A stretch of 64,000 nucleotides of DNA, from the NCBI RefSeq assembly GCF_000786655.1, contig NZ_JROM01000055.1, positions 1-64,000 on the forward strand. The letters are read 5' to 3'. A model generated the notes under the pieces. That model searched no databases. It saw nothing but the letters and a program-made list of their open reading frames with translations, and was not told the origin of the DNA. Below are positions 7,533 to 22,099 of the stretch, one piece after another. Both the position numbers and the translations under genes were made by a program. The number at the start of each line of letters is the position of its first letter. Within the stretch, counting starts at the first letter, position 1. The stretch is from Kocuria marina. Its GTDB lineage: Bacteria; Actinomycetota; Actinomycetes; Actinomycetales; Micrococcaceae.

Positions 7533-10990
<3,458 letters not shown>

Positions 10991-12361: not shown

Positions 12362-15300
12362 ATGCAGTTGAGTCTCCGGATCACGTGGGCCGGTTCCGGC
12401 GTGCTCCACACCGCGCACCTCACCGCCGCACCGGGTGCGCGCGGGGCGGAACTGCGCGCCGAACTCGTCCGACTCCTGGGGACGCCATGCACTGCCGTGG
12501 TCTCCGGGGTCGATCTCGCGGCCACGAGCGTGGGCGCCCCGCCCCTGACGGACGGTGCCACGGTGGCCCTGACCCCGGAGGAACGACATCTCGACGACGC
12601 TGACGTTCCGGTCGGGCCCGCTCGGGCCTCGACGCCGGGTCCCCCCTCCCCGGTCGTGCCGCTCGCGGATTCGCACGAAGCCGCGTGCCTCCTGGCCGTG
12701 GAGGGCGTCGGGGTGGGAACGCGCCTCCCACTGACCCGCGGAACGCATCAGCTCGGCCTCACACCATGTGAGCCGCGGTTGCTCCCCGCGTCGCAGCCGG
12801 GGAAAGATCCCGCCCAACCGACCCTGATCATGGATGACGCGGGCCTGCGGGTGCTCCCGGGAGGCGCAGAACTGCGGCACGGCGACCGGGTCCGCGTGCG
12901 GAGGGACGGTCGTGCGTGCACCCTGCGGGTCTCGTTCCCTGCGGCGCACACCGAGGACCTGGCCTGGCCGGATCCGGCCGTGCCCCCGGCGGGATTCACC
13001 GCCCAGGAGGCGGATCCGGTCCACCCCTTGCGCGTGGACTCCCCCGCGGTTGCGAAGTCCCGGATCGCGCTGATCACGGGCCTGCTCCCCCTCGTGGCCG
13101 GGATCGGTATCGCGGTGGTCACCCACTGGTGGTTCTTCCTGGTCTTCAGCGCCCTGGGTGCCGTCACGTCCGCGGTGGGCTGGTTCGGCGAGCGCGGCGC
13201 GCGGCGCGATCATCGACGTCGCCTGGCCGCGGCCCTCGAACGGGACCTGCGCCGCTGCGAGAAGGCGGCGCCCTCGGCCGCGGAGATCGTGGCGCGCTGC
13301 CGGACGGTGCGCAGCTCATCCCGGATGGACAGCAGCGGACCCCGCGCGGGCACCGCACTGTCCCATGACGCCACAACGCCCGGACGGATCGGCGCCCCTG
13401 CTGCGCGGACACGTCGGTGGGTCCGGCTGGGTCACGCGGCACGGTCCGCGCACATCGTCGGTGACCGTGCGACGGCGCCTCGCGCGGCATTCCACCCCCA
13501 CGCTCCCGTGTTGCTGGATCTGGCGGGGATCGGCAGCCTGACCCTGGTTCTCGACCGGGAACGGGCGGAGGGTGTTCTCCATGCCCTGGCCGTCCAGTTG
13601 TTCACGGGGCCCGCGGCGCTCACCGCATTGCGCGTGTCCCCGGGCATCACGTGGCGCCCGCCCGTGGCCCACGATCTGCTCCCAGCGCCCCATGAGAATC
13701 CGACGGCCTCCTCACCGGACCGGGACGTCGCGCTGGAGGTCGTGACACCGGCGTGGGCCGCCGCCGCGCCGGCCACGCCCGGGACGCTGCGCATCATCGT
13801 GACGGCCGACCCGGAGGGTGCTCCCGGGGACACCGTCGTCACCGCGGGACCGGACGGCCTGCGACTCGGCAGCCGAGTGGTCCATGTCGTTCCGGGGCTC
13901 GCGGAGACCGGGCGCGGGACGCACCTCGAGTTCACGCCGGACACCGTCACGATCGACACGGCCGAGGCGGCGATCCGCGCGTGGCGACGAGCCGCGGGAG
14001 GCACTCACGGTGGGCCACTGCCTCGCCGCGTGGGCTCGCACGAACTGGTGGCCGCACACCCCGGCCCGACCTCCACCGCGCTCATCGGGACGAGCCGTGG
14101 CGGGTCCGACGCTCGTCCCCAGCCCGCGACGTCGACCGCGGCGTTGACCGCGGTGTTCGGCGTGTCGTCCGCGGGGCCGGCGGTCGTCCGGCTCGACGAC
14201 GAGAACCCGCACCTGCTCGTCGCGGGCACCACCGGATGCGGGAAGTCGGAAGTGCTGCGCACCCTCGTCACGGCGCTCGCATACACATTCCCACCCGAGC
14301 GCCTGGAATTCGTGTTCATCGACTTCAAGGGCGGGGCGGCCCTGGCCCCACTGACGGGTCTACCCCACGTCACGTCCCTGCTCACGGACCTGGGACCGGA
14401 CGAGGTCCGCCGCGCCCTGGCCTTCCTACGCTCCGAGGTGCAGCGCCGCGAGCGGGTCCTGTCCTCCCTCGGGCTCAACGACATGGCGCAGCTGCTGCGC
14501 ACCCGGAGCGGTCCACTTCCCCTACGGGAACTCGTGGTCGTGGTGGACGAGGCCAGGATGCTCACGGATGCCTTCCCGGATGCGGGGCAACAGCTCGCGG
14601 TGATTGCCGCGGTGGGTCGGTCCCTCGGTGTCCACCTCGTGCTCGCTACCCAGCGTCCCCAGGGTGCACTGAGCGCGGACGTGCGCGCCAACATCACCCA
14701 GGCACTGTGTCTGCGGGTGCGCAGCGACCAGGAGTCCATGGACGTACTCGGAACCGCCGCGGCGGCCCGCATCGCCCCGGGCATCCCGGGCCGCGGGTTC
14801 CTGGACCGCGGGGACGGCCCGCCCGTGGAGGTGCAGGCGGCGGTCCTGACCCGCATGATCCCGCCGCGGCCCGAGCCCCTGGTGCTTCGTTTCGATCCCG
14901 GACCCCTTCCGAGTCCGCCCGTCGCGGGAACCGGGCACGTCCGCCTCGGCGCGTCCGCCGCGCGGGAAACCGGGGTCACCGCCGCGGTGCGCGATGTCTC
15001 CCGCGCATGGCACGGGTATCTGCCACCCACCTCCTCTGATATGGCACCGTCTCGCGTTCCCGCCGACGCCGCTGTCCCACCGCCCCTGCCCCGCCACGTG
15101 CCCGCGGTGCGCACCGACGGCGAGGTGGATCTGGGTGCGGCGGAGAACCCGGCGGCCCACTGGTGCGGGCGGGTCTCGTGGCACCCGTGGCGGGACGGGC
15201 CGCTGCTGCTGATCGGACGCCCCGAGGCCACGCGCAACGGACTGTTCGACGTGCTGCGGCGCTGCGCCCACATCCGGATCCCGACCGCCACGGACGAGGC

Positions 15301-16735
15301 ACACACGGGGGTGGCGGTGTACGTCCTCACCGCCTCGGGCCAGGCCGTGGAGGGGCTCACCACCGCGGACGGCCGGCCCCTGCACCCCGCCGTCCGCGGC
15401 CGCGCCCGTGTGGACCAGCCCGGGGACGTGGCCCACCTGGTGCGACAACTCCACGAGGGTCTCGAGCACGCGTCCACGGTTCCCGGGGATCCCCCGTCAC
15501 GCGCCGTCCTCGCCGTGGACGACTGGGACCGCTGTTGTCAGGTCCTGCGTGCGAGTTCGTGGGCGCACCTGGAGGACGAGCTGGTGTCCCTCATGGCCAC
15601 GGGCGCGTCCCGCGGGCTGTCCTGCGTGGTCGCGGGGGATCGCGCGCTGGTGGCGGGACGCGCGTCCCACCTCGGCTCCAACCGCTTGTACTTCCCGCAG
15701 GGACAGAGCAGCGACGCCCTCGTGCAGTGGCCCCGCCTACCCCCGTTCACGCCGTATCCCGAGCGAGCCGCCCTCGCGGGCCCGATGGCCGCCCGCTGCA
15801 CGCCGTGGGACCCGGAGGATTCCTCGGGGCATCTCGCGGTCGTGCAGCTCGCCACGGGGCTCGGACCCGACGCGCCCGCGGTCACCCACAGTGCCCCGCC
15901 CGGACCCACGCGGCCCGTGGACCTCCGGGATGCCCGGCTCGTCCCGCCACGGAACGACAGTCCCGCGGGTGCACTCGCCGCGGTGTCCCAGGATTCCCCG
16001 GACACAGGGCGCGCCGACGGCCCGACGCACCACCCGGCGAACCCGTGGCCCACGTCCTTCCCCCTGCCCACCGTGTGGCATGCTCCCGATCGGTCCGTGG
16101 CCGGCCTGGTGCTGGGTGTCACGCGGGGCGGGCAATGCGCCGTTCACCCGTGGGGTCCCGGTTCGACCCTGATCGTCGCCAGCCCGGCGCGGTCGGGGCG
16201 ATCCACGTTCCTCGACGCCGCCCGTTCCGGGTTGTCCGCGGGCGCATCCGGAGACGGCGCACCCGAATATCTCGTTCTCACCGGCTCCCCCAGGACCGCA
16301 GCCGAGGCCGAAGAGCTCCTGCGCGCCGCCAGGTCAGCTGATCGACCGGCCACGATCATCATCGACGACGCCGACCACCTCACCCCCGATGTCCTCCGGG
16401 CACTGGCCACCGCGTGGTCCCCGCATGCCGTCCCGGTCGAGTCCCACCAGGCGGCGGACAGCCCAGTCACTGCCTCGGCCCAGCCCGGGGTACGGATGAT
16501 CGTGGGCGTGCGCCTCACGGATGCGCTCGCGGGGACCTTTCCCCCGTTACTCGCGTGGCGTCAGCACGCGGACACGCTCCTGGTGCGACCACGCCGGGTG
16601 TTCGACGGTGACGTGTTCGGCGTGTCCCTCACGGGCCTCGCGCTGGGCGGGCCGCCCGGCCGCGCGGTCTGGGCGCACCGCGGCCTCGCGGAACCGGTGC
16701 AGCTGCCCGCGCCCGCGCGGGCGGTCACGAAGTGA
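12362..16735 (+). CDS. EssC/EccC-type FtsK/SpoIIIE ATPase (type VII secretion motor-like)
   Basis: A 1,457-aa protein. The N-terminal 220 residues form two FHA-like/ubiquitin-like modules (LRHGDRVRVRRDG in the second), followed by two membrane helices at about 233-275 (IALITGLLPLVAGIGIAVVT, FFLVFSALGAVTSAVGWF). The first ATPase domain is intact: Walker A AGTTGCGKSE near 622, IDFKGGAALAPLTGLPH near 653, Walker B VVVVDEARM near 723 and ATQRPQG near 760. The second (IGRPEATRNG near 946, AVDDWDRC near 1050) and third (SPARSGRST near 1270, IIIDDADHL near 1331) have lost the Walker A lysine. This matches EssC/EccC, where the first domain is the main motor. GGTGGAG precedes the ATG. No WXG100 substrate, EccD/EsaA or other partner is in the window. 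Confidence 0.85.
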   Translation: MQLSLRITWAGSGVLHTAHLTAAPGARGAELRAELVRLLGTPCTAVVSGVDLAATSVGAPPLTDGATVALTPEERHLDDADVPVGPARASTPGPPSPVVPLADSHEAACLLAVEGVGVGTRLPLTRGTHQLGLTPCEPRLLPASQPGKDPAQPTLIMDDAGLRVLPGGAELRHGDRVRVRRDGRACTLRVSFPAAHTEDLAWPDPAVPPAGFTAQEADPVHPLRVDSPAVAKSRIALITGLLPLVAGIGIAVVTHWWFFLVFSALGAVTSAVGWFGERGARRDHRRRLAAALERDLRRCEKAAPSAAEIVARCRTVRSSSRMDSSGPRAGTALSHDATTPGRIGAPAARTRRWVRLGHAARSAHIVGDRATAPRAAFHPHAPVLLDLAGIGSLTLVLDRERAEGVLHALAVQLFTGPAALTALRVSPGITWRPPVAHDLLPAPHENPTASSPDRDVALEVVTPAWAAAAPATPGTLRIIVTADPEGAPGDTVVTAGPDGLRLGSRVVHVVPGLAETGRGTHLEFTPDTVTIDTAEAAIRAWRRAAGGTHGGPLPRRVGSHELVAAHPGPTSTALIGTSRGGSDARPQPATSTAALTAVFGVSSAGPAVVRLDDENPHLLVAGTTGCGKSEVLRTLVTALAYTFPPERLEFVFIDFKGGAALAPLTGLPHVTSLLTDLGPDEVRRALAFLRSEVQRRERVLSSLGLNDMAQLLRTRSGPLPLRELVVVVDEARMLTDAFPDAGQQLAVIAAVGRSLGVHLVLATQRPQGALSADVRANITQALCLRVRSDQESMDVLGTAAAARIAPGIPGRGFLDRGDGPPVEVQAAVLTRMIPPRPEPLVLRFDPGPLPSPPVAGTGHVRLGASAARETGVTAAVRDVSRAWHGYLPPTSSDMAPSRVPADAAVPPPLPRHVPAVRTDGEVDLGAAENPAAHWCGRVSWHPWRDGPLLLIGRPEATRNGLFDVLRRCAHIRIPTATDEAHTGVAVYVLTASGQAVEGLTTADGRPLHPAVRGRARVDQPGDVAHLVRQLHEGLEHASTVPGDPPSRAVLAVDDWDRCCQVLRASSWAHLEDELVSLMATGASRGLSCVVAGDRALVAGRASHLGSNRLYFPQGQSSDALVQWPRLPPFTPYPERAALAGPMAARCTPWDPEDSSGHLAVVQLATGLGPDAPAVTHSAPPGPTRPVDLRDARLVPPRNDSPAGALAAVSQDSPDTGRADGPTHHPANPWPTSFPLPTVWHAPDRSVAGLVLGVTRGGQCAVHPWGPGSTLIVASPARSGRSTFLDAARSGLSAGASGDGAPEYLVLTGSPRTAAEAEELLRAARSADRPATIIIDDADHLTPDVLRALATAWSPHAVPVESHQAADSPVTASAQPGVRMIVGVRLTDALAGTFPPLLAWRQHADTLLVRPRRVFDGDVFGVSLTGLALGGPPGRAVWAHRGLAEPVQLPAPARAVTK

Positions 16736-16885: not shown

Positions 16886-17317
16886 TCAGCGAGCGACGTC
16901 GTCGTGGGTGCGATGCATCCAGGCGACGGTGCGCGGTGCGAACAAGCACAGGACGGTGACCACCGCGACCGCCGCGACGGCGATGCCCCAGAAACCCATG
17001 GTGCGCTGCAGGAAGGACAGTCCGACGATCAGCAGGAACGCCTGGGACACCAGGACGGCGGCGCGCGGCCAGCGCAGACCTCGCCAGGTCCCGCGGGCCG
17101 CCGCCCCGAGCCACAACGCACCGGCGGCGAGCACCACGGTCGCGAAGATGATCCCCGCGACGGGCAGGACGTGGACGGAGAACAGGGAGACGACCAGGCC
17201 CACGGCGACCGCGAGCAATGCCGCAGCCTCCAACGCCACCAGCACGGTGATCACGGATGCGGTCCAGGGCCGGGAAGTCGCGGCTCCGGGGGCGGTACGA
17301 CGATCCGGGGCGGCCAT
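16886..17317 (-). CDS. Four-helix membrane protein of unknown function
   Basis: A 143-aa protein, not recognised. After a 15-residue polar N terminus come four hydrophobic segments: ASVITVLVALEAAALLAVAV, LPVAGIIFATVVLAAGALWLG, AVLVSQAFLLIVGLSFL and GIAVAAVAVVTVLCLFAP, ending in WMHRTHDDVAR. The start is ATG 17317 after AAAGG; an upstream GTG would add 26 unhydrophobic residues. It is divergent from whiB1 and convergent with the EssC-type gene (150-nt gap with no gene or clear hairpin). Small four-TM proteins of this kind are common in Micrococcales; I can assign no function. Confidence 0.7.
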   Translation of the reverse strand: MAAPDRRTAPGAATSRPWTASVITVLVALEAAALLAVAVGLVVSLFSVHVLPVAGIIFATVVLAAGALWLGAAARGTWRGLRWPRAAVLVSQAFLLIVGLSFLQRTMGFWGIAVAAVAVVTVLCLFAPRTVAWMHRTHDDVAR

Positions 17318-17686
17318 GCGGAAAACCTTTCGGCGGGGACGGGAGCACTCCCACTGTAGTGACCGCATCGGCCCGCGACCGGTGACCGATGCCACGAACC
17401 GGTCCCGTCCCCCGATGCCGGAGGCGGTTCATGCCGGCGGCCGACATCACGCCCGGACATCCGGCGGCAATCGTTGCGAGGGGCGCCTTGGGATGTGATA
17501 TAGCGCTCACACCCTTGTTTACTGTGTGTTTACGTGGGAAAGTAGTGGGCAGAATCCCCAGGGTCCGACATCCACGGGCCTTTTCTGTGTGTCATTCCCC
17601 CCGGAAATCCGCGACGCGGCTCGCTGCCGCATTGCTCGGGATGCGCACGGGCCCGCACCCACGAACCCGAAAGGAGCCGTGCCGTC
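17318..17686 (+). promoter_or_regulatory. whiB1 upstream region with long leader
   Basis: 369 nt without a gene between two divergent starts. An AT-richer patch at 17490-17545 contains the imperfect dyad TGTGA-N8-TCACA (17494-17511) and TTGTTTACTGTGTGTTTAC just after it. If transcription starts near there, whiB1 has a leader of about 140 nt. Mycobacterial whiB1 is controlled by CRP and by WhiB1 itself, so the dyad is a reasonable operator candidate, but its spacer is 8 nt rather than the 6 nt of the CRP consensus. GAAAGGAG at 17670-17677 is the ribosome binding site. Confidence 0.4.
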
Positions 17687-17935
17687 ATGGATTGGCGTAG
17701 TCGCGCAGCTTGCCTCGAAAAGGATCCCGAACTGTTCTTCCCGGTGGGCAACACCGGCCCCGCCCTGTTGCAAATCGAGGAAGCCAAGGCCGTGTGCCGC
17801 ACGTGCGAGGTCATGGACACGTGCCTGCAGTGGGCCCTCGAATCCGGCCAGGACGCCGGTGTGTGGGGCGGTATGAGCGAGGACGAACGGCGTGCGTTGA
17901 AGCGCCGCGCCGCCCGCGCCCGCCGCGCCTCCTAA
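17687..17935 (+). CDS. whiB1: WhiB-family iron-sulfur transcriptional regulator, WhiB1-like
   Basis: An 82-aa protein with the four cysteines of a WhiB 4Fe-4S cluster (C9, then the C37-x2-C40-x5-C46 group in VCRTCEVMDTCLQWA), the WhiB turn GVWGGMSEDER and a basic C-terminal DNA-binding tail RRALKRRAARARRAS. WhiB1 binds the principal sigma factor region 4 and responds to nitric oxide through its cluster; it is essential in mycobacteria. The short length, the MDWRSRAACL start and the proximity to PdtaS favour WhiB1 over WhiB2/3/7. It is monocistronic, with a terminator following. Confidence 0.93.
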   Translation: MDWRSRAACLEKDPELFFPVGNTGPALLQIEEAKAVCRTCEVMDTCLQWALESGQDAGVWGGMSEDERRALKRRAARARRAS

Positions 17936-18018: not shown

Positions 18019-19602
18019 TCAGGAGCGCCCGGACATCGCCCGCGGGAACCGGGCGGTGATGATCACGCTCGTCCCACCGCCGTCAGCGGGTTGCCACCGG
18101 ATGCCGCCCTGCAGCTCACTGGCCACGAGCGTGCGCACGATCTGCATCCCGAGTCCCTCGCCCTCCGCGGGTGGGCGGTAGGCGTCCACACCGGATTCCT
18201 CGATCACGGCGTCCCCCATACCGCGCCCGTCGTCGTTGATCGCGATCTCGACGACGCGGTACCTCTCCCCCGCGTCCGTGACCTCGTCCTCCCGGTGCGT
18301 CACCACGAGTTCCACTGTGCCGTCCCGGTCCTTGAGCCCGTGCCCCACAGCGTTGGCCACGATCTCGTTGACCACGAGGGCCACGGACGTCGCACTCTTG
18401 GACGGCAACCGACCGAACCGGCCGCTGACCCGGGTGCGCACGTGCTGGCCCGCGGAGGCGGTTTCCACCGCGAGTTTGACCTGGTGGCGGATGAGGTCGT
18501 CGAAGTCCACGTCCTCCGAGATCTCGTGGGACAGGGACTCGTGCACGCGCGCGATCGCACTCACGCGCCGCATGGCCTGCTGCAGGCCGTTGCGTCCCTC
18601 GTCGGAATGCATACGCCGGGACTGCAGACGCAGGAGGGCGGAGACCGTCTGCAGGTTGTTCTTGACCCGGTGGTGGATCTCCCGGATCGTCGCGTCCTTG
18701 GAGACGAGCTGCAGGTCTCGGCGCCGCAGTTCCGTGACGTCCCGGCACAGCAACAGCGCCCCGGTGCGTTCCGGGCCCTCCCGCAGCGGGATCGCACGCA
18801 GCGTGGCCGAGGCCTTGCCGGTGGCGAGTTCTGCGCGCCACGGCATGGTCCCCGCGAGCACGGGCGCCAGGGTCTCGTCCACGCCAGGGGCGGTCAGGGG
18901 CAACTGACGTGCCACGTGCAACAGGTTCTGCCCCGTGATGTCCCCCGCCAGACCCAGCCGCCGGAACGTGGACAGACCGTTGGGGGAACAGAACTCCACG
19001 GTTCCCTCGGCGTTGAGCCGCATGATGCCGTCCCCCACGCGCGGGGCGCCGCGGCGGGAATCGGTGCGCACCGCGAAATCCGGCCACGTCCCCTGGTTCG
19101 CCATGCGCAGCAGGGCAGAGGCCAGCTCGTGGTACACGAGTTCCATGCGGGACGGCAAGCGGTCGTGCTGGGGGTCCGCGGTGAGACTGACGACGGCGAT
19201 CGTGCGGTTGTTGCGCACGAGCGGCACGAGGGTGACCGACCGCGACGCGAGGCTCGACCATTCCGATGGACCGGCCCGTTCGATCCGCCGGTCCACCCAC
19301 GCCCTGCGCAGTGTGAACGCGGCCTCGCCACCCACGACCTCCCCCACCATGTCCTTCTGGTAAGCGGTGGGGCCCGTGGTGGGCCGGGCATGCGCCAGCA
19401 CGAGGAACTCGCTGCCCTCGCCCGGAATCGGATCCCCCGTGGGGCTCTCGGCGGCGGGGATCACGTCCGCGGGGAAGCACAACAGCAGGTCCCCGAAGCC
19501 CAGGTCCGCGACCATCTGCCAGTCCCCCACGAGCAGGTGCAGCCACTCGGCGTCCCCGGCGTCGAAGTCCGGGACAGATCGCAACGGATCCGTGAAGGCC
19601 AT
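18019..19602 (-). CDS. pdtaS: Sensor histidine kinase, PdtaS-like (HisKA_2)
   Basis: A 527-aa cytosolic kinase with no membrane segment. Residues 1-150 form a GAF-like domain, 170-300 a PAS-like domain (GIMRLNAEGTVEFCSPNG), then the HisKA_2 dimerisation motif REIHHRVKNNLQTVSALLRL near 325 with the phosphoacceptor in EIHHR, and an HATPase domain (VVNEIVANAVGHGL, INDDGRGMG, GEGLGMQIVRTL). PdtaS of mycobacteria has this GAF-PAS-HisKA_2 layout and phosphorylates the antiterminator-type regulator PdtaR; no pdtaR gene is in this window. The start is ATG 19602; a TTG 18 nt upstream is in frame but less likely. It lies downstream of the CpaE-like gene by 21 nt and is probably co-transcribed. Confidence 0.88.
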   Translation of the reverse strand: MAFTDPLRSVPDFDAGDAEWLHLLVGDWQMVADLGFGDLLLCFPADVIPAAESPTGDPIPGEGSEFLVLAHARPTTGPTAYQKDMVGEVVGGEAAFTLRRAWVDRRIERAGPSEWSSLASRSVTLVPLVRNNRTIAVVSLTADPQHDRLPSRMELVYHELASALLRMANQGTWPDFAVRTDSRRGAPRVGDGIMRLNAEGTVEFCSPNGLSTFRRLGLAGDITGQNLLHVARQLPLTAPGVDETLAPVLAGTMPWRAELATGKASATLRAIPLREGPERTGALLLCRDVTELRRRDLQLVSKDATIREIHHRVKNNLQTVSALLRLQSRRMHSDEGRNGLQQAMRRVSAIARVHESLSHEISEDVDFDDLIRHQVKLAVETASAGQHVRTRVSGRFGRLPSKSATSVALVVNEIVANAVGHGLKDRDGTVELVVTHREDEVTDAGERYRVVEIAINDDGRGMGDAVIEESGVDAYRPPAEGEGLGMQIVRTLVASELQGGIRWQPADGGGTSVIITARFPRAMSGRS

Positions 19603-19623
19603 GGAACGCTCGCTTTCCAATGC

Positions 19624-21213
19624 TCAACCGCGGCGCAACCACGCGCCCATCCGACGCCCCAGCCTAGTCCCCGCCGGACCCGCTCCCGCGCCCACGGGTT
19701 CCGCCGCGCCTCCGTGTGCGTCGGGCTCGCGCATCCGCCGCACGAGCTCCGCGAGCGCACTCATCTCGTGGCGTAGCGCGCTGCGCGGCGCAGTCTCCGC
19801 GAGTACGGCGCCGGCGAGCAGGGCGTCGTCGCACGTCTTGGCGTCCCACGAGAGGGTGTGGGCCACGGGGTACCCGGGCGAGAAACGCTCCCAAGCCTCC
19901 CGCACGGACTCGGCCGCGGAGCGACCGGTGGCGGCGGCGCGCAGTTTGTTCATGACGACGACGATGCGCGCGTCCGGCGCCGCGTCCAGCAGGTCCGGCA
20001 GAGCCTTGACGAGCCGCGGGACGCCGAGGGTATCCGCTGCCCCGAGTGCGATCACGACGTCCGCGGCCGCGACCGCGGTCAACGTCCCGGCGTTGCGCCG
20101 CGGGGCCATGAAATCGGAGCTGATCTCCTCGTCGGACTCGAGGCCGAAGGCGGTGTCCACGACCACGGCGTCGTAGTCCTCCCGGGCGCGGTCGAGCACG
20201 AGGTCCAGGGCAGAACCCCGGATCTCGGGCCAGCGGTCGTAGCGGGTGATCCCGGTCAGCACGTCCAGCGAGGCGCCCGCGACGGACACCGTGCTCGCGC
20301 AGCGTCGCAGTCCCTCCCGGTCCAGCCGCGCCTGGTCGGCGAGCCGGCAGGCCTGCGCCAGCCCCGCGGCTTCGTCCAGCATCCCGAGGCTCGCCGCGAC
20401 CGAGGCGGCATAGGTGTCCGCGTCCACGAGCAGCACACGCCGCCCGAGCAGGGCGAGTTCCGCCGCGAGATTGAGCGAGGTGACCGTGCGGCCGGGCGCT
20501 CCGGCCGGTCCCCACACGGCGATCAACCGGCAGGCTTCGGCATCGTCGAGGGCGTCCGACTCGTCGGGGTCATGCGCCGTCGCGGGATCGCCCGATGACC
20601 CAGCGGATACGGCGGATCCCGAGCCGAGTCCGGCGCCGTCGGGGCCGATGCGCCCTTCCCCGGGGGCGCTGTCCGGGGAGGCTTCGGAATTCGTGATTGC
20701 TCGGTCCAAGGCTCGCCCGGCTGCGTCTTCGTGCGATGCCGGCCCGTCCGAGGGCGCATCAGTCGCCGCCGCGCCGTTCGACGTCGCTCCCTTCGATGCC
20801 GCCCCGCGCCCGGGTGCCGGGCGTTCGCCGGGCGCCGCAGCGCCGTCGTCACGCACCGACGACGGCGAGCGCGCGGGACCGAGCATCGCGCGGGTGATGA
20901 TCCGGGCGAGTTCCTCCCCGGTGGCGTCCGGGGGCACGCTGCCGACACCCAGACGCTGCACGCGGGACTCGTCGTGTCCCTCGACCACCAGGACCCGCAG
21001 GTCGTCGGTCTCGAGTTGATCGAGCAGGCTCGCGGTGAGCTCCTCGGCGCCCTCCGCGACGAGCGCCGCGTGGGCCATGCGGGTGTGGGCGCACGCGAGC
21101 AGTTCGGCGAGGTCCAGACAGCGCCGCACCACCGTGACGTCCCCGTGCAAGCGTTCGAGCCGGTCCACGAGCGGCCACGTGCTCGTCCCGAGCGTCACCA
21201 CGGAGATGCTCAC
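19624..21213 (-). CDS. CpaE-like ParA/MinD-family P-loop protein
   Basis: A 529-aa protein. Residues 1-110 are a receiver-like domain without an obvious phosphorylation site. Residues 115-225 are a low-complexity Ala/Gly/Ser/Asp linker, and 230-480 are a MinD/ParA ATPase: deviant Walker A WGPAGAPGRTVTSLNLA, LLVDADTYAASVAASLGM, Walker B DAVVVDTAFG and VVVMNKLR. CpaE proteins localise Flp/Tad secretion machinery at a pole, and this protein is coupled (GTGA overlap) to a CpaB-like protein. However, there is no pilin, CpaF ATPase or TadB/C gene here, so its real partner is unknown. The Walker A has Arg where the general P-loop lysine would be. Confidence 0.72.
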   Translation of the reverse strand: MSISVVTLGTSTWPLVDRLERLHGDVTVVRRCLDLAELLACAHTRMAHAALVAEGAEELTASLLDQLETDDLRVLVVEGHDESRVQRLGVGSVPPDATGEELARIITRAMLGPARSPSSVRDDGAAAPGERPAPGRGAASKGATSNGAAATDAPSDGPASHEDAAGRALDRAITNSEASPDSAPGEGRIGPDGAGLGSGSAVSAGSSGDPATAHDPDESDALDDAEACRLIAVWGPAGAPGRTVTSLNLAAELALLGRRVLLVDADTYAASVAASLGMLDEAAGLAQACRLADQARLDREGLRRCASTVSVAGASLDVLTGITRYDRWPEIRGSALDLVLDRAREDYDAVVVDTAFGLESDEEISSDFMAPRRNAGTLTAVAAADVVIALGAADTLGVPRLVKALPDLLDAAPDARIVVVMNKLRAAATGRSAAESVREAWERFSPGYPVAHTLSWDAKTCDDALLAGAVLAETAPRSALRHEMSALAELVRRMREPDAHGGAAEPVGAGAGPAGTRLGRRMGAWLRRG

Positions 21214-21872
21214 GAGCCGGAACCCGCCGTGTTGAGCACCAAGGTCACCTTGGCGTCGTTGCCGAGCGCGTCCACGAGCGGACCCACCTGGGCCTGCGTG
21301 ACCAGGACGTAGACCGTGGCGGAGGCGTTACCGCCGAGTGCCGTGTCCTTGGTGTCCACGCGTGCGATCTCCGCGCCCGCGACGAGTTTCTCGGGCGCCC
21401 CGTACCCGCGCCCCGTGGGTTTGGGCTCGGCCACCCACACGTCCACATGGGACCCCGCCTCCGCCTGGGCCGGCATGGGAGTGGTCAGGGCGACCCCCAC
21501 GGGTGTGCGGTCGAGCTCGTCCGCGGTGCCCACCGCCGCGGCCGGCACGAGTTGCCCGCGCGCCACGCGCTGGGTCACCACGGCGTTCTCCCGCAGTTGC
21601 CCGTCCGGGACGTACTGCGCGGAGGAATCCTGCAGGTGCGCGTCCACCGTGCCCAGGTCCTCCCGCGTGATCCGTTGACCCACGGAGAGGTCGTTGGCCG
21701 CGACGTAGTACGGCTGGGTACGGTTGGCCGTGGCGACCAGCAGGATCACCCCCAGCACGGAGAGCAGGACCAACAGCAGCCCCACGAGCAGGCGCGGATC
21801 CCGCCAGGACGGTTTGCGGAATCGTGCGGCCGTGGACCGTCCCGAGCGCTCGAGCGCCGCGGTGCTCCCCAT
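21210..21872 (-). CDS. SAF-domain membrane protein, CpaB-like
   Basis: A 220-aa protein with a basic N terminus, one membrane helix (LLVGLLLVLLSVLGVILLVA, about residues 27-46) and an extracytoplasmic SAF domain starting YYVAANDLSVGQRITREDL, followed by a RcpC/CpaB-like region (VALTTPMPAQAEAGSHVDVW and TVYVLVTQAQVGPLVDAL). CpaB/RcpC proteins gate or brace the Flp pilus secretin in Gram-negatives; an actinobacterium has no outer-membrane secretin, so the role must differ. The start is ATG 21872 with AAAGGATG. The stop overlaps the GTG of the CpaE-like gene, indicating a two-gene unit. Confidence 0.75.
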   Translation of the reverse strand: MGSTAALERSGRSTAARFRKPSWRDPRLLVGLLLVLLSVLGVILLVATANRTQPYYVAANDLSVGQRITREDLGTVDAHLQDSSAQYVPDGQLRENAVVTQRVARGQLVPAAAVGTADELDRTPVGVALTTPMPAQAEAGSHVDVWVAEPKPTGRGYGAPEKLVAGAEIARVDTKDTALGGNASATVYVLVTQAQVGPLVDALGNDAKVTLVLNTAGSGS

Positions 21873-22099
21873 GCTGACATCCTTTCGTGATGCACCGGCC
21901 CCCGCCGGCTGCACCCGAGTGTGCCGCGCCGCACACCGCGCTGGGAAGTGTGACGAACGCCCTGTGGACGGAGGTGGCCACGTGTCCATTCGGCCCAGGA
22001 CCTGTTGATAACCCGCCGCCTGCCCCCTCACGTGGGACAATGACGAGCGAACCCCGATGAAACAGCATGCAACGGCACCTAAGAAAGTGATGGACCGGA

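What the first reader, a model, noticed from the sequence alone, without database searches (positions are those of the whole stretch)
12362..16735. Orphan EssC/EccC-type secretion ATPase with only the first of three motors intact
The protein has the N-terminal FHA-like modules, membrane pair and three tandem FtsK domains of a type VII secretion motor. The first P-loop is canonical; the second and third lack the Walker A lysine. No WXG100 substrate, EccB/D/E or EsaA-like gene is within 50 kb on the right or 12 kb on the left. It could serve a scattered T7SS or a stand-alone function.
Basis: partly seen in the sequence, partly recalled or inferred. Interest (0 to 1): 0.5.

Follow-up and report, generated by a model that had tools for sequence, protein, structure and literature searches.

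The report
Type VII secretion system in pieces
A bacterial protein-export motor that seemed to have lost its partners appears to belong to a secretion system whose genes sit at separate, conserved places on the chromosome across an order of actinobacteria, something gene-cluster surveys would miss.

Summary
In detail: 12362-16735 encodes a 1457-aa EccC/EssC-type ATPase with no T7SS gene nearby. It is probably not an orphan. The genome (a Kocuria close to K. marina) holds one strong WXG100 gene, near groEL on another contig, and a WXG-like/lipase gene pair between purB and a hisC-like gene on a third. All three genes occur in the same 11 of 25 Kocuria genomes. In most sampled genomes of other families each keeps its own neighbours: EssC by whiB-pdtaS, WXG100 by groEL or a histidine kinase, lipase by purB/hisC. 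The sampled whiB-linked ATPases fall in one clade, apart from T7SSa EccC. EccB and EccD profiles find nothing in this genome. The "lost lysines" are mostly an accepted arginine form of Walker A; only D2 is truly degenerate in Kocuria. A predicted ubiquitin-like domain, resembling YukD, and an FHA fold precede the membrane pair, so the usual ubiquitin-like component seems fused to the motor. I read this as a dispersed, minimal T7SS and saw no description of it in the open papers searched. Secretion is not shown; co-occurrence rests on three independent contrasts.

The parts
12362..16735 (+). EccC/EssC-type ATPase gene of the proposed dispersed system (P0001, 1457 aa)
12362..12586 (+). predicted ubiquitin-like N-terminal domain (residues 1-75), YukD/EsaB-like
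   Evidence: AlphaFold model and VIA-align Z 8.1-8.7 to ubiquitin-fold chains, modest but whole-domain; hhalign to EccD YukD domains, probability 86%, E 4.7e-6
12668..12943 (+). FHA fold (residues 103-194); phosphothreonine-type motif not found in Kocuria
   Evidence: not detected by Pfam in this protein
13049..13267 (+). helix pair taken as transmembrane (residues 230-302)
   Evidence: long helices in the model, aligned to the EccC membrane region; no membrane predictor was run
13418..13999 (+). EccC DUF/D0 domain (residues 353-546)
   Evidence: 8rin_A Z 12.6
14126..14866 (+). D1 FtsK-type motor, Walker A GTTGCGKS at residues 622-629, Walker B VDE
15122..15856 (+). D2 domain (boundaries chosen by hand), P-loop degenerate (GRPEATRN), still under purifying selection
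16037..16711 (+). D3 domain (boundaries chosen by hand), arginine-form Walker A (SPARSGRS), Walker B DD; presumed WXG100-tail receptor
   Evidence: receptor role by analogy to EccC ATPase3 (PMC6954902, passages)
16886..17395 (-). small hydrophobic protein, neighbour on the other strand; candidate membrane partner, no family match
17687..17935 (+). whiB (conserved neighbour marker of the ATPase locus)
   Evidence: PF02467 E 3e-27
18019..19620 (-). PdtaS-type histidine kinase (conserved neighbour marker)

Best explanation
This is the membrane ATPase of a minimal type VII secretion system whose genes are dispersed. Inferred mechanism: (1) EssC assembles as a membrane hexamer through its helix pair and DUF. 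(2) D1 hydrolyses ATP; D2 in Kocuria is structural; D3 keeps an arginine-type Walker A and a DD Walker B and captures the C-terminal tail of the WXG100 protein (YxxxE followed by a conserved Phe). (3) The fused ubiquitin-like domain does the job that separate EsaB/YukD, or the ubiquitin-like part of EccD, does in other T7SS. (4) The core WXG100 protein, presumably a homodimer, activates the motor, which exports it and, where present, a WXG-like partner plus a lipase-domain effector. Shown by computation: homology, domain order (partly by model), motif states, loci, distribution, selection. Inferred: assembly, pairing, secretion and effector function.
For: One EssC-like ATPase and one strong WXG100 in the genome. 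All three genes in the same 11 of 25 Kocuria and in none of the other 14 (in the 11 the lipase is partial in G015 at a contig end and in pieces in G002). All 39 sampled ATPases with whiB/pdtaS in the fetched stretch lie in one clade of 48, SH-aLRT 98, quick tree. Of 44 genomes with a fetched ATPase of that clade (rows), 43 have the WXG100; the exception is G173. WXG100 stretches: groEL, or a histidine kinase within 5 kb, in 20 of 21; no EssC relative and only one WXG100 frame in 21 of 21. Lipase stretches: purB or hisC in 22 of 25 (a 26th, L224, has both but BLAST did not recover the lipase). Order-wide, the 10 of 198 genomes with neither EssC nor WXG100 also lack the lipase. WXG100 tail: Y83, E87, F94 invariant in 15 of 15, YxxxE in the 20 further tails. 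Ubiquitin-like domain. Purifying selection on all parts. No EccB or EccD match in the genome.
Against: No physical or secretion data. On the FtsK tree the joint absences are three independent contrasts only, sign test p 0.25. The order-wide EssC state means any EssC-like ATPase, not the whiB-linked type: for G062, G087, G102 and G153, for instance, the fetched ATPase belonged to the other clade, and further copies were not fetched. Twenty of 186 EssC-positive genomes lack this WXG100 model: all 15 of family f11, whose sampled member G034 has an EssC with WXG100 genes next to it, and five others including G173, whose ATPase is whiB-linked. The lipase model is missing from 12 of 186 EssC-positive genomes and may also catch unrelated lipases. 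G213 and G054 scored WXG100 and lipase but no EssC; the EssC search scored only three candidates per genome. Only 9 of 25 lipase stretches showed a coding-like small ORF upstream. D2 lost its P-loop here, whereas D2 Walker residues are needed for assembly in S. aureus EssC (PMC9436818, passages).
Confidence: 0.62

Rival explanations
1. The three loci are ancestral actinobacterial genes, each kept for its own reason; the ATPase works alone or with local neighbours (small membrane protein, WhiB, PdtaS) and does not export the groEL-linked WXG100 protein.
For: No physical linkage, also in one-contig genomes such as G006. Conserved local neighbourhood of the ATPase. Only three independent joint absences. 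Lipase sometimes absent.
Against: The WXG100 protein carries a T7SS export motif and no other EccC/EssC was found in this genome to use it. The joint absences agree in all three contrasts, with states set as told under Tried and rejected.
Confidence: 0.2
2. Known T7SSa (ESX-4-like) or T7SSd system that has lost its cluster organisation, with EccB/EccD/EccE-type parts too divergent for the profiles.
For: T7SSa genes coexist in other-family genomes of the sample (EccB and YukD matches in G030, G033, G036). Profiles can miss divergent proteins. EccE and MycP were not searched.
Against: T7SSa EccC form a separate branch at SH-aLRT 100. The YukD and EccB profiles found matches over their cut-offs in other genomes of the same search. 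A ubiquitin-like domain seems already fused to the ATPase.
Confidence: 0.12
3. Decaying remnant of a lost T7SS.
For: Degenerate D2 P-loop and missing FHA motif in Kocuria. Frames broken in some relatives.
Against: dN/dS 0.38 overall, 0.21 in D2, 0.11 for WXG100, the last like housekeeping FtsK. Long open frames are kept in most ATPases of the clade, down to about 40-50% D1 identity.
Confidence: 0.06

Closest known systems
T7SSb EssC (Bacillus subtilis YukB, S. aureus EssC)
   Same: FHA fold before the membrane pair, DUF, three FtsK domains, arginine-form Walker A accepted, single WXG100
   Different: Ubiquitin-like domain here seems fused to the ATPase instead of a separate EsaB/YukD; one FHA fold, not two; genes unlinked; EssA/EssB/EsaA not searched
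T7SSa EccC (ESX, T. curvata EccC)
   Same: Three-domain cytoplasmic motor (model matched across all three domains of 4nh0), DUF, YxxxD/E tail on WXG100
   Different: No EccB or EccD found in the genome; single WXG100 gene away from the ATPase; separate branch in the tree
T7SSd (Garrett et al. 2024, PMC11217815; seen: abstract, introduction, first part of the Results, sections 9 and 15, discussion, found passages)
   Same: Actinomycetota; FHA-bearing ATPase; single WXG100; no stand-alone ubiquitin-like protein
   Different: T7SSd is a gene cluster with kinase TsdD, TsdH and TsdI; here no cluster; direct sequence comparison with TsdC not done
LXG/EspB-type effectors and lipase TslA (as described in PMC11217815)
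   Same: Helical WXG-like region plus enzyme domain; in Kocuria a small WXG-like gene directly upstream
   Different: Lipase domain at the C-terminus, not reversed as in TslA; encoded far from the ATPase; secretion untested

Membership tests
Type VII secretion system (general) | Membrane FtsK-type EccC/EssC ATPase | tested here: met
   (NCBIfam scores are below the curated cut-offs)
Type VII secretion system (general) | WXG100 protein in the same genome with T7SS export motif | tested here: met
   (unlinked)
Type VII secretion system (general) | ATPase-dependent secretion of the WXG100 protein | not testable with these tools
   needs the secretome of a deletion strain
T7SSa (ESX) | EccB | tested here: not met
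   PF05108: none in own genome; over the cut-off in G030, G033, G036
T7SSa (ESX) | EccD with YukD domain | tested here: not met
   PF08817: none in own genome; found in six other genomes
T7SSa (ESX) | EccE and MycP | not tested
T7SSa (ESX) | ATPase groups with EccC | tested here: not met
   separate clades in a D1-based quick tree
T7SSb | EssA, EssB, EsaA | not tested
T7SSb | separate EsaB/YukD protein | tested here: not met
   PF08817 none in genome; a predicted ubiquitin-like domain is fused instead
T7SSd | cluster of TsdA, TsdC, kinase TsdD, TsdH, TsdI | tested here: not met
   WXG100 on another contig; scanned genes at 7.5-24.5 kb of the window show no Ser/Thr kinase family; TsdH and TsdI had no profile to test
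T7SSd | ATPase sequence groups with TsdC | not tested
   no TsdC sequence at hand

The most novel reading that the evidence does not exclude
An undescribed T7SS type is part of the ancestral genome of a whole actinobacterial order: an ATPase with the ubiquitin-like component fused to it, a single WXG100 gene tied to groEL and a two-component system, and an optional lipase effector, each at its own conserved chromosomal address, with no EccB/EccD.
Probability: 0.5. Interest if true: 0.78.

Novelty: new variant of a known kind. Interest (0 to 1): 0.6.

Why it matters
The recent catalogue of T7SS types was built on gene neighbourhoods (PMC11217815), which cannot see a dispersed system. A 2014 survey of 940 genomes stated that all WXG100 genes of Actinobacteria lie in CFP-10/ESAT-6 operons 'without exception' (PMC3935865, passages). 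Here one WXG100 model matches 168 of 198 genomes of one order, and in 21 of 21 stretches looked at the gene has no second WXG100 and no EssC relative beside it. If secretion depends on this ATPase, it would show how small a T7SS can be, and where the ubiquitin-like component goes when no separate gene encodes it.

Tried and rejected
Considered and rejected: (a) a lone DNA translocase: D1 is closer to EccC than to FtsK in sequence searches, and T7SS-type N-terminal domains and D2-D3 are kept. (b) Pseudogene: selection values speak against it. (c) Co-occurrence inside Kocuria as strong evidence: it is one event on the FtsK tree, so an order-wide test was added, which gave three independent contrasts. 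(d) A shared small partner gene upstream of the lipase order-wide: found beside the lipase in the eight other Kocuria genomes examined, but only 9 of 25 stretches overall had a coding-like small ORF there, and the own locus was not counted by that rule. (e) Naming the two-component system beside WXG100: no curated cut-off was reached. (f) D3 pocket from the model: D3 confidence is uneven and pTM 0.36, so no pocket claim is made. (g) A full-length EssC tree did not finish; a D1-based tree was used.

Literature: ten searches were answered. I saw no description of an unlinked EssC/WXG100 system in this order in their listings. Only open PMC papers are held and no preprints, so this is weak evidence of novelty. 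The A. schaalii genome paper (PMC5720513, passages) mentions a second eccC 'elsewhere in the genome'; whether it is of this type was not tested.

Rows dropped and choices made: one search leaves G213 without a state; G074 and G189 had no FtsK match and are not on the tree; WXG100 and lipase states were set equal to the EssC state there because searches agree for those rows (other, mostly weak WXG100 matches in G004, G007 and G017 counted as absent; G004 has one just over the cut-off, 29.8 bits), so the agreement on that tree is by construction from those calls. 'EssC-negative' in the 198 genomes is my reading of the E-values (nothing beyond the FtsK level of 1e-31 to 1e-36, or no match: 12 genomes). 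The lists of negatives are capped; the last 10 and 2 were found by subtraction. One search covers 73 of 77 ATPases (four fragmentary ones left out), read from an automatic alignment. Stretches were picked by hand among well-scoring matches with listed coordinates, not at random. G019 and G002 are only 76 and 79% complete.

Full report
What is there. The window is the first 64 kb of contig C51 (194 kb) of a 3.07-Mb, 62-contig genome, 99.97% complete. The nearest named relative of the ATPase is from Kocuria marina, 91%. The frame 12362-16735 encodes 1457 residues from an ATG. Sequence searches put it with EccC/EssC: T. curvata EccC at E 6e-60 and NCBIfam EssC and EccC models at E 1e-38 to 1e-52, below their cut-offs. 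It is the only EssC-like ATPase found in the genome: PF01580 also finds housekeeping FtsK and a short match on C43, and the ATPase itself matches only FtsK besides itself.

Architecture. An AlphaFold model of residues 1-559 (9 sequences, mean pLDDT 67) gives a ubiquitin fold at 1-75 (VIA-align Z 8.1-8.7; for example 3plu, 70 residues aligned, rmsd 2.2), an FHA fold at 103-194 (GarA, Z 8.4) and the EccC membrane-plus-DUF part at about 198-546 (ESX-5 and ESX-3 chains, Z 12.6-14.3). Z near 8 is modest, but a profile of the N-terminal domain (10 sequences) also matches YukD domains of EccD proteins with probability 86%, E 4.7e-6. The second model, residues 560-1457, is weaker (mean pLDDT 62, pTM 0.36), but its best match spans all three domains of T. 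curvata EccC. So the ubiquitin-like part, elsewhere a separate EsaB/YukD protein or part of EccD, appears fused to the motor. A phosphothreonine-type FHA motif is found in 24 of 35 non-Kocuria members of the clade and in none of the nine Kocuria sequences (membership as).

The lysines. In 44 ATPases of this clade D1 has GK[ST] in 44. D2 has the arginine form in 28, lysine in 2 and no motif in 14, among them all nine Kocuria. D3 has arginine in 36, lysine in 3 and no full motif in 5; in the window protein only the first glycine differs. In 29 other EssC/EccC proteins D2 has lysine in 19 and arginine in 10; D3 has arginine in 20, lysine in 8 and neither in 1. Papers write the motif with K or R (PMC6954902 for ATPase3, with Walker B hhhhDD; PMC9436818 for EssC; passages). 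The unusual point is therefore the dead D2 in Kocuria, which is still under purifying selection (dN/dS 0.21).

The missing partners. PF06013 finds two places in the genome, both on other contigs: a 96-residue WXG100 gene (E 1.6e-15) after an OmpR-type two-component pair and near groEL, and a 148-residue WXG-like gene (E 3e-4, also weakly PPE/EspC-like) directly before a protein of about 740 residues with a class 3 lipase match (E 8e-5) and GHSLGG. The WXG100 tail is YAETEAANARMF; Y83, E87 and F94 are invariant in 15 of 15 proteins from 15 genomes. Their spacing fits the HxxxD/ExxhxxxH pattern of PMC3935865 (passages), except that the 'h' position holds Asn here, as it does in that paper's PE25 example. 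EccB and EccD profiles find nothing in the genome.

Distribution. Of 25 Kocuria genomes, 11 have the ATPase orthologue, and exactly those 11 have the strong WXG100 and the lipase (partial in G015, in pieces in G002). Eleven have none of the three (G019 is 76% complete). Three (G004, G007, G017) have other, EccC-like ATPases with YukD-bearing EccD and other, mostly weak WXG100 matches. The 11 form one clade of the FtsK tree, so this is one event. Order-wide, in 198 genomes, 186 have an EssC-like match of any type beyond the FtsK level (my reading), 168 the WXG100 model and 176 the lipase model, which may include other lipases. EssC/WXG100: both 166, EssC only 20, WXG100 only 2, neither 10; the same 10 lack the lipase (Fisher p 8e-8 and 2e-9 without correction for kinship). 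With kinship, three independent contrasts go the same way, which cannot reach significance (p 0.25). For the whiB-linked type itself, 43 of the 44 genomes whose ATPase of that clade was fetched have the WXG100; G173 does not.

Conserved addresses. Of 77 ATPases, all 39 with whiB or pdtaS in the fetched stretch fall in one clade of 48 (SH-aLRT 98, no bootstrap). T7SSa-type EccC form another (100). Nineteen others form a third group (91, below the starred level); several of these have WXG100 genes within about 5 kb (G030, G032, G034, G037, G038). Of the nine clade members without those neighbours, some lie on short contigs (G015, G038) and others (Nesterenkonia, G029, G113, G218) lie elsewhere. 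WXG100: 20 of 21 stretches have groEL, or a histidine kinase within 5 kb; in 8 of 21 the kinase is directly upstream on the same strand; none of the 21 holds an EssC relative or a second WXG100. Lipase: 22 of 25 have purB or hisC, 17 both. In the one-contig genome G006 the three genes lie at 0.98, 2.09 and 0.38 Mb. In family f4 the WXG100 and lipase genes are 9.8-12.7 kb apart in 13 of 13 genomes that have both; there the groEL and purB regions are neighbours (seen in G102), so the closeness may follow from that.

Reading. A minimal, dispersed T7SS is the best account: the motor, its single WXG100 partner and one optional effector pair. What is shown is homology, motif states, distribution and conserved loci. 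Assembly, pairing and export are inferred from EccC/EssC work. A natural reduction points to D1 as the essential motor: in G027 (1.8 Mb genome) the whiB-linked protein is only 660 residues, with a hydrophobic N-terminal stretch, D1 and one more P-loop domain. Against the reading stand the few independent contrasts, the 20 genomes with some EssC but not this WXG100 model, EssC types left unresolved in many genomes, and the lack of any experiment.

Comparison. It works like a T7SS. It is not T7SSa as tested (no EccB or EccD, separate branch). It is not the T7SSd of PMC11217815 as defined by its cluster, although TsdC itself was not compared. That paper surveys gene neighbourhoods, and its main text has no match for Arthrobacter, Micrococc- or 'scattered'. 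PMC3935865 (940 genomes) states that actinobacterial WXG100 genes are in two-gene operons without exception; the present gene is an exception.

Noticed in passing
L047 7215-9820 (own genome, contig C14): The WXG100 gene starts 107 bp after an OmpR-type response regulator/histidine kinase pair on the same strand; in 8 of 21 WXG100 loci a histidine kinase is directly upstream on that strand. A shared transcript would link export to an envelope signal.
   Followed up: partly
window 16886-17395 (-): Small hydrophobic protein between EssC and whiB, no Pfam or NCBIfam match; similar proteins in the same slot in two other genomes by BLAST (G039, G117) and in several others by eye. Possible unknown membrane component.
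   Followed up: partly
G004, G007, G017 (L139-L143): Three Kocuria genomes carry EccC-like ATPases and a YukD-bearing EccD but no match to the EccB profile.
   Followed up: no
L098, L101, L103, L105: EssC reading frame is broken into overlapping pieces in Kocuria atrinae, two Arthrobacter and one Nesterenkonia record: assembly error or decay.
   Followed up: no
window 7533-10747 (-): UDP-galactopyranose mutase and a GlfT2-like galactofuranosyltransferase beside the ATPase locus; the genes are also near EssC in other Kocuria and in G039 and G117.
   Followed up: no
window 19624-22040 (-): ParA-like ATPase with a SAF-domain protein; recalled as CpaE/CpaB-like, the rest of a Tad cluster not seen among the scanned neighbours.
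   Followed up: no
G027 (L172 8112-10094): A 660-residue whiB-linked EssC without the ubiquitin-like/FHA part and with only one P-loop domain after D1, which is canonical.
   Followed up: partly
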